Part shown: positions 55,601 to 63,682 of the stretch, piece after piece
Numbering within the stretch: the stretch's first letter is position 1
How the letters are laid out: the number at the start of each line of letters is the position of its first letter
From: Owenia fusiformis
Taxonomy: Eukaryota; Annelida; Polychaeta; Sabellida; Oweniidae
DNA: 64,000 bases
Reading direction: 5' to 3'
Assembly: GCA_903813345.2 (NCBI GenBank)
Contig: CAIIXF020000009.1
Location: forward strand, 28,990,740-29,054,739
Notes under the pieces: generated by a model
Told to the model about the DNA's origin: nothing
Database searches by the model: none
The model's input: the letters and a program-made list of their open reading frames with translations, nothing else
Translations under genes and position numbers: made by a program

Positions 55601-58600
55601 TACACCATTTTTTAGGTAACAGGGGATTCTCCATTGGCATTGGTGATGTCACACCTGGAGCTGGATTACTGAAGGCAAAATATATGCTACTGGATGAAGG
55701 GTTTGTTCTATATTACATATACATTTATTTTGCATACTAGTAAATAAAGCTCAACACAACACAATAACTGGTACCAAAGATCATGATGAATTAAGATTAT
55801 GTAAGTGCTAAGGTAATTCTAAGGATATTTCAAACCAACTTTGTTAGTTTGTAGACTTCATAAAATGTAAATTATAATATTTGATAAATTCATAAAATAT
55901 GTTTCATATTTTCAACTTCAGGTACAGTAAGTGCAATGAATATATCGAGGATCTAAAGGAGGGTCGACTGCAGACTCAACCTGGATGCTCTGAAGAAGAA
56001 ACTCTGGAAGTAAGCAATCAACATTAATATTTTATTAGTCCTCTTCACCTGAATTTTAATTAAATATAGTTGAAGACTCCAATGATTTGTGTGGCATATT
56101 AAAAAGTTTTTTATGAACCAGTTTTAGGATACCTGATACAAGTTTACCTATTGCAAATCTTTCTCGTAGGCTATGATACTGAAGGAGCTCTCTGTTATTC
56201 GAGACCATGCTGGGAAAGCCTGTCTAAGAGAACTGCACAAGAGTAACAGCCCACTCAACATGGCTATATGTGGATCTAAAGGTATTCAATATATCACAAT
56301 GAAAACTAAACATATTTTCTGATTTATTATGTCATCATTACAAGTTTTGTGCAAATATTATTATAGTCCCCAACTGTTTTGTGGAGAGTTTTTAGCAGTC
56401 AGTGTTCTGCGCGTGGCCGGCATCTATAACAAATGGCTAGGGGTGACATTTTGCATGTTTATACTGTGTTAATGATTATTATAGCTCACAGTCTTAATTT
56501 CCATATCGTTCATCCTATGGCAAATGAGTTTACATTTGAATTTAGAATTGCATCCATTAAAGGAATATTCCTTGCCAAACCATCTCTCTCCTCATATGGT
56601 AGCTATAACCATATATATGCTTGCCATGTTTAGCAAAACACGCAAAAATGTTTTGATATGGTCAAATTTGATCACTTAGAAATGTGATGCTCAATTCCAG
56701 TAAGCTGCCATCTTTTAAAATTTCACACAGGAAGTGATGTCATCGACTCTCAACTTTGCATATAGCATTAGGTGAGGAGCTATTAAGAATTACAAAACCA
56801 GCTCAATATTCTTTTTCAACTTTGTATCTTATTTAATCCTTCTGAAAATCTCTTCTTTTATTCTAAGTTGACAAGCCCTGAAAATATTTTTGCACAGAAA
56901 GTAATGATCACTTGTCTAGAAGTGATTTTGTGCTACTTTCCTATACTGTTATGGGCAAGGTTATAGAAGTTGAGAGTTGATGACATCACTTCCTGCAAGA
57001 AATCTTAAAAGATGGCAGCTCACTGAAAATAAGCACTAGATTTTTAAATGATCAATATTGACCATATTAAAACATTTTCCCATGTTTTGCAAAATATGGA
57101 AACTATATATATGATTATAGCTACCATATCAAGAGAGAAACGGGTATGGCAAGGAATATTCCTTTAAGCTCATGGGTATGGTCATCCGTTTGTCATCTAT
57201 TTATTATGTTGATTTATGTTAATATATGTTAATTTATGTTACTAGGTTCATTCATTAATATCTCTCAGATGATTGCCTGTGTGGGCCAGCAGGCCATCAG
57301 TGGCAAGAGAGTGCCAAATGGTTTTGAGGACAGAGCTCTGCCACACTTTGAAAGACATTGTGAGTACAGAATGTTGCAAAAATAAGGTATAATATTCTCA
57401 ATTGATAATAAAACAAACCTTGAGAATAATCTCAAGGGAAATCATCCCATCTCACCCCTCCCTAAATTGATATATAGTGAGAGAATAATGCCAGTCTGGA
57501 AAAGTCAAATATTAAAGATATTAAGAAGTTCTGTTAAGTCTTTGCAAATATGATTTCACTTGCTGTTTGTAGCAAAGGTCCCTGCTGCTAAAGGGTTTGT
57601 GTCCAATAGTTTCTACAGCGGCCTTACCCCAACAGAGTTCATGTTTCACACTATGGCAGGGAGAGAAGGTCTCGTTGACACGGCTGTAAAGACTGCAGAG
57701 ACAGGCTACATGCAGAGACGTCTCGTCAAGGTGAGGAAATAAGATTATGATGCTCAACAGTTTTATGGTTTGAATGTCTTAAAGCCTAGCGAATTACCTG
57801 AACTTAATTTTCCTTTTTACATAAGCTCAATAATGGTCTGAGGGAATTAAAGAAAAGGATTAAAAAATAAAGTTAGGAATGGAAAATTAAAAAACACACA
57901 TAGACAACTGATATCATATGTCATGTGATGTCATGACATTATTGGTTGGCTGATTGGTTGCTACTCATATCACAATATGTATCCATTTGTGAAACCCTCA
58001 GAATCTAAGCTTTCATCTCAATATTCATATTTCAGTCCCTAGAAGATCTATGCTCGCATTATGACACAACTGTCCGCACATCACAGGGTGAGATTGTACA
58101 GTTTGTTTATGGCAACGATGGACTTGACCCTGTTGCTATGGAAGGCAAAGACAGACCTGTTGACTTTAAACGTGTCTTGGATCATATAAAGGTATAGCAT
58201 ACATCTCACCATTCTTATTTGATGTATGTGTTACTTATAAAATTAGTTGATGTCAGTTGCATGAGTAAATGAACAAGTGCTGAAATGCTGATATTGATTA
58301 AAATTTATAGATACGACATTAAGAAAACATCATGATATTATGTTTACTAAATAATTCTTTTGATTCATACTTGATATGGCGACCAAATGGTATGCTATAT
58401 TATTGCCTGCTTAATTTCAGGCTAAATTCCCATGTCCTAAAGAAGATGCGCTGACAGGAGCTCACCTTGTACATGCTTATATATTTCAGGCTAAATTTCC
58501 ATGTCCTAAAGAAGATGCGCTGACAGGAGCTCACCTTGTACATTAGGGGTCACACGGTTTGAGATTTCATGGTTCGGTTCGGTGATTGTATTTCACAGTT

Positions 58601-63682: not shown

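What the first reader, a model, noticed from the sequence alone, without database searches (positions are those of the whole stretch)
58407..62890. Eight tandem copies of a 3' splice site plus exon start at POLR3A exon 22
The acceptor and first 54 bases of one exon are repeated with a 69-bp period, exactly 23 codons. Units 4-7 are open through the acceptors as well (HAYIFQ between the AKFPC segments), so using an upstream acceptor would insert 23-residue blocks into the polymerase. Stops in unit 3 and a one-base loss before unit 8 mean only the last acceptor gives a normal protein. The gene therefore relies on choosing one of several near-identical acceptors, or makes frame-broken isoforms. 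I know of no similar array in this gene.
Basis: partly seen in the sequence, partly recalled or inferred. Interest (0 to 1): 0.85.

Follow-up and report, generated by a model that had tools for sequence, protein, structure and literature searches.

The report
Repeated splice site inside POLR3A gene
An animal, probably a marine worm, carries eight near-copies of one splice site and exon start in its gene for the big subunit of RNA polymerase III, and only the last copy can give a normal protein; arrays of this kind ("mirages") are known from lancelets, so it is a striking new example of a known kind.

Summary
The array is real: eight copies, 91-100% like one reference copy, of the 3' end of intron 21 plus the first 53 bases of POLR3A exon 22. 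All seven upstream acceptors, used singly, lead to premature stops; only the last (62769) gives a POLR3A that aligns to human without a gap. The exon finds no other place in the 498-Mb assembly. Weight matrices from 15-16 other introns of the gene score the eight as ordinary acceptors, unit 5 weakest; six of eight have a CTGAC/CTAAC/TTAAC branch-point candidate 34-35 nt upstream, made of exon-derived sequence. Best reading: a minisatellite spanning an intron-exon boundary, the 'mirage' kind described in lancelet genes, here in a genome with annelid markers resembling Owenia. The seven upstream units have become intron; the last acceptor makes the protein. Splicing itself is untested. New member of a known kind.

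The parts
58036..58191 (+). POLR3A exon '21' ([13 protein letters not shown]...LDHIK), last exon before the array; donor AAG|GTATAG at 58192
   Evidence: aligns to human POLR3A from residue 878
58407..58473 (+). Unit 1: acceptor (exon side from 58421) preceded by a differing intron end, plus 53 nt of exon copy
58476..58542 (+). Unit 2 (exon side from 58490); runs into the transposon, TAG stop at 58544
58544..62401 (.). hAT-like non-autonomous transposon, 3,858 bp, first 16 bp of the two ends identical (inverted), 8-bp target duplication 58536-58543 / 62402-62409
62411..62477 (+). Unit 3 (exon side from 62425), two in-frame stops
62480..62546 (+). Unit 4 (exon side from 62494)
62549..62615 (+). 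Unit 5 (exon side from 62563); weakest acceptor of the eight in the gene-derived models
62618..62684 (+). Unit 6 (exon side from 62632)
62687..62753 (+). Unit 7 (exon side from 62701); carries a candidate branch point for unit 8
62731..62735 (+). Candidate branch point CTGAC (branch A at 62734), exon-derived, 34 nt before the AG of unit 8; a second YTNAY match lies at 24 nt
   Evidence: motif match only
62755..62821 (+). Unit 8: the acceptor inferred to be productive (exon side from 62769); one base fewer upstream than the other units
62769..62890 (+). POLR3A exon '22' as it must be spliced for a normal protein, 122 nt, donor ATT|GTAAGT at 62891
63179..63270 (+). POLR3A exon '23', 92 nt

Best explanation
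It is a minisatellite that grew across an intron-exon boundary (a 'mirage'). A segment holding about the last 16 bases of intron 21 and the first 53 bases of exon 22 was tandemly duplicated to eight units and partly homogenised by unequal exchange or conversion. A hAT-like transposon later landed between units 2 and 3. In the RNA, units 1-7 now lie inside the intron, which ends at 62768 (4,577 nt, against 229 nt to the first acceptor). The acceptor next to the exon 22 donor (unit 8) makes the functional mRNA, favoured because it bounds a normal 122-nt exon with a good donor. Its branch point is probably supplied by former exon sequence in unit 7 (CTGAC, 34 nt upstream). Use of upstream acceptors would give messages with premature stops, presumably destroyed by nonsense-mediated decay. 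Shown: array, transposon, frames, no second locus found. Inferred: acceptor choice, branch point, decay, neutrality, order of events other than array before transposon.
For: Eight units with exact coordinates. Human POLR3A aligns without a gap through the exon 21 / unit 8 join. 7 of 7 upstream acceptors, used singly, give stops, through three kinds of lesion: transposon, nonsense codons, one-base loss; these could accumulate only if upstream units were not needed for coding. All 8 matches of the exon in the assembly are the array itself, and Rpb1 domain 5 gives 10 matches at three loci, one of them this gene, so this copy probably has to work; further POLR3A-like exons lie downstream. Units 2 and 7 are identical over 69 nt while the edge units 1 and 8 differ from them, like the homogenised core and excluded edges reported for a lancelet mirage. 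Against 15 other acceptors of the gene (left-out scores -2.8 to 11.8) seven array acceptors score 4.3-9.6 and unit 8 scores 12.6. A YTNAY motif lies 24-37 nt upstream of 7 of 8 array acceptors; unit 1 has none nearer than 46 nt (scan of 15-59 nt).
Against: No RNA data: acceptor use is inferred. YTNAY is degenerate (13 of 16 other acceptors of the gene have one within 15-45 nt), so the branch-point evidence is weak. Unit 8 ranks first of 291 AGs in four of six model settings, but in the two that look only 12 bases upstream it ties with units 2, 3, 4 and 7 behind unit 6; in resampling it was best of the eight in 334-472 of 500 draws in the first four settings and in 0 of 500 in the other two. 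Unit 3, a core unit, is the most diverged, which fits homogenisation poorly. Unit 1, nearest the donor of exon 21, would be preferred by simple intron-definition or linear-scanning models (recalled). Only one haplotype is seen, and withheld or missing stretches of the assembly could hide another copy.
Confidence: 0.8

Rival explanations
1. Regulatory array: the seven upstream acceptors act as poison acceptors that divert part of the pre-mRNA into decay, and unit copy number sets the POLR3A dose.
For: Pol III dose is linked to growth (recalled).
Against: No sign of constraint: units carry replacement and nonsense changes, and a member of a transposon family with near-identical copies sits in the array. 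Lancelet mirages are reported not to disturb regular splicing. Intact AGs are expected anyway at this low divergence.
Confidence: 0.08
2. Protein-diversifying array: alternative acceptors insert 23-residue blocks (or 16-residue blocks by leaving a unit at a donor inside it) into POLR3A.
For: Period 69 = 23 codons; units 4-7 open through the acceptors. Possible in an ancestor or on another haplotype before the one-base loss, the unit 3 stops and the transposon.
Against: On this haplotype 7 of 7 upstream acceptors, used singly, give stops. Of 18 GTs in units 1-7 the best scores 1.97 and the best in frame (CTT|GTACAT) 1.33, against left-out scores of 4.5-10.1 for 13 of 14 gene donors; the fourteenth scores only 1.0, so a weak donor is not impossible. 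Human POLR3A has no insertion there.
Confidence: 0.03
3. Assembly artefact: a haplotype mixture or false expansion of a single acceptor unit.
For: Tandem arrays are error-prone; PMC3087553 says that one BflGb6 mirage appears aberrantly assembled in the lancelet draft (passage).
Against: Units differ at up to 8 of 53 exon positions. A transposon with perfect 8-bp target duplication sits at the joint of units 2 and 3, so these were adjacent in real DNA. No other copy found in the assembly. Units 2 and 7 are identical, so the exact copy number could still be off.
Confidence: 0.06

Closest known systems
'Mirage' minisatellites of lancelets: Adh3, globins BflGb6 and BflGb9, TnC, PGBD5 (passages of PMC3087553, and PMC3902484)
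   Same: Tandem duplication of an intron-exon boundary; BflGb6 has 6 and 3 units on two haplotypes, made of the 3' end of an intron plus the 5' part of the next exon, with splice signals in many repeats; core units homogenised, edge units not.
   Different: 69-bp units against 150-160 bp in BflGb6 (10-72 bp in Adh3); a core polymerase gene; interrupted by a transposon; genome with annelid and spiralian markers, not a lancelet; haplotype variation and RNA not examined here.
Human IFI6 (6-16) minisatellite with multiple splice donors (Turri et al. 1995; only its title seen, in the reference list of PMC4526556; the paper itself is not held)
   Same: Minisatellite that offers many splice sites of one kind (title; details recalled).
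   Different: Donor sites there, acceptor sites here.
Potato RdRp intron gain by tandem duplication across an intron-exon boundary (abstract and passages of PMC4974935)
   Same: Segment with 3' end of intron and 5' part of exon duplicated; the new intronic sequence inherits putative branch site, pyrimidine tract and acceptor.
   Different: One duplication, an activated donor and a new intron there; here seven extra units join an existing intron and no good donor is found inside a unit.
Fission yeast genes with multiple 24-bp exonic AGGT repeats crossed by an intron (SPOG_01682, SOCG_00815; as told in a passage of PMC4974935)
   Same: Several tandem units carrying splice signals, some of them now intronic.
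   Different: Purely exonic units that supply both donor and acceptor; here the unit spans an existing boundary.
hAT-type non-autonomous elements (superfamily rule recalled)
   Same: Short terminal inverted repeats and 8-bp target duplications.
   Different: This copy is enlarged by a nested tandem-repeat element of about 3 kb; no transposase seen, so the assignment rests on the ends only.

Membership tests
Mirage minisatellite | Tandem repeat units that span an intron-exon boundary | tested here: met
   Eight units, each with acceptor and 53 nt of exon copy
Mirage minisatellite | Homogenised core units, edge units excluded | tested here: inconclusive
   Units 2 and 7 identical over 69 nt; unit 1 differs at 6-7 of 16 upstream bases and unit 8 has a one-base loss; but core unit 3 is the most diverged (4-8 of 53 exon differences)
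Mirage minisatellite | Copy-number variation between haplotypes | not testable with these tools
   One haplotype; one locus found in the assembly
Mirage minisatellite | Regular mRNA splicing undisturbed | not testable with these tools
   No RNA data; inferred from the single gene copy
Mirage minisatellite | Occurs in a lancelet (all cases I saw; not part of the definition) | tested here: not met
   Lox5-type homeodomain followed by KLTGP among Hox homeodomains on C1 (signature recalled), 3 Eryth_link_C matches over cut-off (annelid specificity recalled), contig make-up and size like Owenia. Indirect: no lancelet genome was compared
hAT-like transposon | 8-bp target site duplication | tested here: met
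   TTGTACAT both sides here; 6 of 7 other copies examined have identical 8-bp flanks, the seventh (L008) gave no pair of ends in the fetched DNA
hAT-like transposon | Short terminal inverted repeats | tested here: met
   First 16 bp of the two ends identical
hAT-like transposon | hAT transposase | tested here: not met
   No stop-to-stop ORF of 110 aa or more inside; shorter frames were not searched against families, and no autonomous partner was sought
Intron gain by tandem duplication | A new intron with its own donor inside the duplicated segment | tested here: not met
   18 GTs in units 1-7, best score 1.97, against 4.5-10.1 for 13 of 14 gene donors and 1.0 for one

The most novel reading that the evidence does not exclude
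The array is a heritable splicing dial: each added acceptor unit diverts a share of POLR3A pre-mRNA into decay, so minisatellite copy number (and the transposon) tunes Pol III dose between individuals, and mirages have arisen independently in annelids as they did in lancelets.
Probability: 0.08. Interest if true: 0.75.

Novelty: new member of a known kind. Interest (0 to 1): 0.42.

Why it matters
It extends mirage minisatellites, which in the passages I could read are reported from lancelets, to what looks like an annelid and to a core gene of which only one copy was found. It is a natural form of the duplicated-acceptor experiment (recalled): eight near-equal acceptors compete, and the cell should have to use the one next to the downstream donor. 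It also shows a simple route by which exon sequence, including branch-point-like motifs, becomes intron without a new intron being made.

Tried and rejected
Alternative haplotype or second gene copy: none found in the assembly, with the caveat that withheld stretches read N. In-frame block insertion: rejected for single use of an upstream acceptor on this haplotype by stop positions. Leaving a unit at a donor inside it: 18 GTs scored, best 1.97; unlikely, not impossible. Unit 8 as clearly the strongest acceptor: first of 291 in four model settings, tied behind unit 6 in two, so not claimed. Lancelet origin: considered because of the mirages, set aside because of Lox5, linker domain and contig make-up. 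Taxon from mitochondrial COX1: no match in the assembly. Replacement against silent changes among units: looked at by eye, too few for a test. Survey of further mirages in this genome: not done; I had no annotation or RNA. The other tandem arrays of the window were not tested against exon boundaries. No related animal genome was available to compare.

Literature: searched for minisatellites or duplications at splice sites, for Owenia. What I opened gave lancelet cases, the potato case with the fission yeast and vertebrate (ATP2A1) examples it cites, and the title of the human donor minisatellite. Other papers in those lists, such as PMC2809761 on intron gain in Drosophila, were seen in the listing only. 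No claim is made that no annelid case is in print. The original Adh3 and IFI6 papers are not held (one search used a wrong identifier for the Adh3 paper).

Full report
OBSERVATION. The first exon bases after TTTCAG are 58421, 58490, 62425, 62494, 62563, 62632, 62701 and 62769, spaced 69, 3935, 69, 69, 69, 69 and 68. Over 67 nt the copies are 91-100% identical to one of them, and Tandem Repeats Finder reports both blocks. In all eight, 53 nt of exon start stand in register.

WHAT LIES IN THE GAP. The 3,935-base step is not part of the repeat. At 58544-62401 lies a 3,858-bp insertion whose two ends begin with the same 16 bases (inverted) and which is flanked by TTGTACAT on both sides. The target duplication includes the joint of units 2 and 3, so these were neighbours when the element came in. 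Its first 200 bases give 40 scored matches in the genome, itself included, at 97-100% identity (40 of 79 candidates scored); its last 200 likewise (40 of 72 scored). Of seven other copies examined, six have identical 8-bp flanks, with lengths 610, 858, 867, 867, 867 and 1,339 bp; the seventh gave no pair of ends in the DNA held. The copy here is longer because about 3 kb of a 1,259-bp tandem repeat is nested in it. I call it hAT-like from its ends and 8-bp duplication (rule recalled); it has no stop-to-stop frame of 110 aa or more. The high similarity among copies suggests a recent insertion.

THE GENE. The translated exons 21-22-23 match human POLR3A, residues 878-992, without a gap when unit 8 is used. 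Rpb1 domain 5 gives 10 matches at three loci in the assembly, three of the ten in this gene, as expected for Pol I, II and III (expectation recalled). The exon finds nothing outside the array. POLR3A-like exons continue downstream (read by eye). So this looks like the only POLR3A, and it should work. Stretches of the assembly that read N could hide another copy.

READING FRAMES. From exon 21, acceptors 1 to 7 all run into stops: at 58544 (units 1 and 2, first bases of the transposon), 62446 (unit 3) and 62800 (units 4-7, after the one-base loss), after 41, 18, 7, 102, 79, 56 and 33 residues. Unit 8 stays open and leaves a 122-nt exon, 62769-62890, whose joining to exon 23 gives the peptide that aligns to human. 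Leaving a unit early is unlikely: 18 GTs in units 1-7 score at most 1.97, although one real donor of the gene scores only 1.0.

SPLICE SIGNALS. A weight matrix from 15 other acceptors of the gene, picked by eye, scores the array acceptors 9.5, 8.6, 8.6, 8.6, 4.3, 9.6, 8.6 and 12.6; the fifteen score -2.8 to 11.8 when left out in turn. With 16 acceptors and six model settings unit 8 ranked first of 291 AGs in four and, in the two shortest models, tied with units 2, 3, 4 and 7 behind unit 6; in resampling it was best of eight in 353, 334, 472, 443, 0 and 0 of 500 draws. The fair statement is that the eight are ordinary acceptors, unit 5 the weakest. Units 2 and 4-8 each have a CTGAC, CTAAC or TTAAC 34-35 nt before their AG, lying in the exon part of the preceding unit; the two AGs that follow it begin 2 and 5 nt after the branch A, close enough to be bypassed under the rule in PMC1431707 (under 12-15 nt; passages). 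90% of human branch points are said to lie 19-37 nt from the acceptor (PMC7951965, passage). Unit 3 now has a motif at 37 nt that lies in the transposon; unit 1 has none nearer than 46. But YTNAY is a loose motif: 13 of 16 other acceptors have one at 15-45 nt, so this is a suggestion, not a demonstration.

MECHANISM. Two rules pull apart here. A search from the exon 21 side would take unit 1 or 2 and give a useless message. Pairing of an acceptor with the nearest downstream donor across an exon (exon definition, recalled) would take unit 8, with a 122-nt exon and a donor whose left-out score is 6.9. If the gene is single and its product essential (recalled), unit 8 must be used often enough. 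Three kinds of lesion upstream say that units 1-7 are not kept for coding.

KNOWN KIND. [quoted passage not shown] core units are homogenised, edge units not; the Adh3 and RT-PCR data suggest that regular splicing is not disturbed, though repeats could be used as cryptic sites. PMC3902484 (passage) adds TnC and PGBD5. The present array fits that description in build; on homogenisation it fits only in part, since unit 3 is the most diverged. PMC4974935 (abstract and passages) describes one such duplication that created a new intron in potato, and cites fission yeast genes with several AGGT repeats.

ORGANISM. The genome holds a Lox5-type homeodomain followed by KLTGP within a run of Hox homeodomains on C1, three matches to the annelid erythrocruorin linker family on C6, one with an internal stop, and large contigs among C1-C12 in 498 Mb: lengths of C1, C2, C4, C5, C6, C9 and C12 are 32-62 Mb, and C3, C7, C8, C10 and C11 reach at least 21-39 Mb by match positions; C25 has 0.19 Mb; C13-C24 were not seen. 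Owenia fusiformis is described with 505.8 Mb, 12 chromosome-scale scaffolds and a Hox cluster on chromosome 1 (PMC9977687, passages). The species is therefore probably Owenia or a near relative; this is an inference.

VERDICT. The idea of protein blocks is not supported on this haplotype; the idea of competing acceptors is sound and testable.

Noticed in passing
59068-62060: Inside the hAT-like element lies a nested tandem element: a 475-bp segment three times with a 784-bp segment between (period 1,259). A piece of it matches very many places in the genome (40 scored of 1,367 candidates, 98-100% identical, three of the 40 in this element), often again in steps of about 1,260 bp, sometimes about 2,050: an abundant, probably young element that exists as short tandem arrays.
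   Followed up: partly
62821-62828: The repeat unit ends (62821) one base before the exon-side edge of a cryptic donor, CAG|GTGATA (GT at 62823, score 5.75), inside the real exon 22, so a unit's exon part plus one base is bounded by AG and GT like a 54-nt mini-exon.
   Followed up: no
62784-62786: The productive unit 8 codes FPCT where human POLR3A and units 1, 2, 4, 6 and 7 have FPCP; unit 5 shares the change, which suggests exchange between units.
   Followed up: no
48946-50271 (-): An uninterrupted 441-aa sulfotransferase reading frame (Sulfotransfer_1) lies antisense between two POLR3A exons.
   Followed up: partly
40212-42152 (-): A 646-aa reverse transcriptase frame (RVT_1), probably a non-LTR retrotransposon, just upstream of the first POLR3A exon identified here (42366).
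   Followed up: partly
39392-39710; 21797-22146; 52572-52978: Further tandem arrays (80 bp x 4, 178 bp x 2, 147 bp x 2.9); the last lies between two POLR3A exons. Not tested against exon boundaries.
   Followed up: no
59930 and 61189: Two AGs inside the transposon score like real acceptors (10.1, second and third of 291 in the model), so the insert could supply cryptic acceptors of its own.
   Followed up: no
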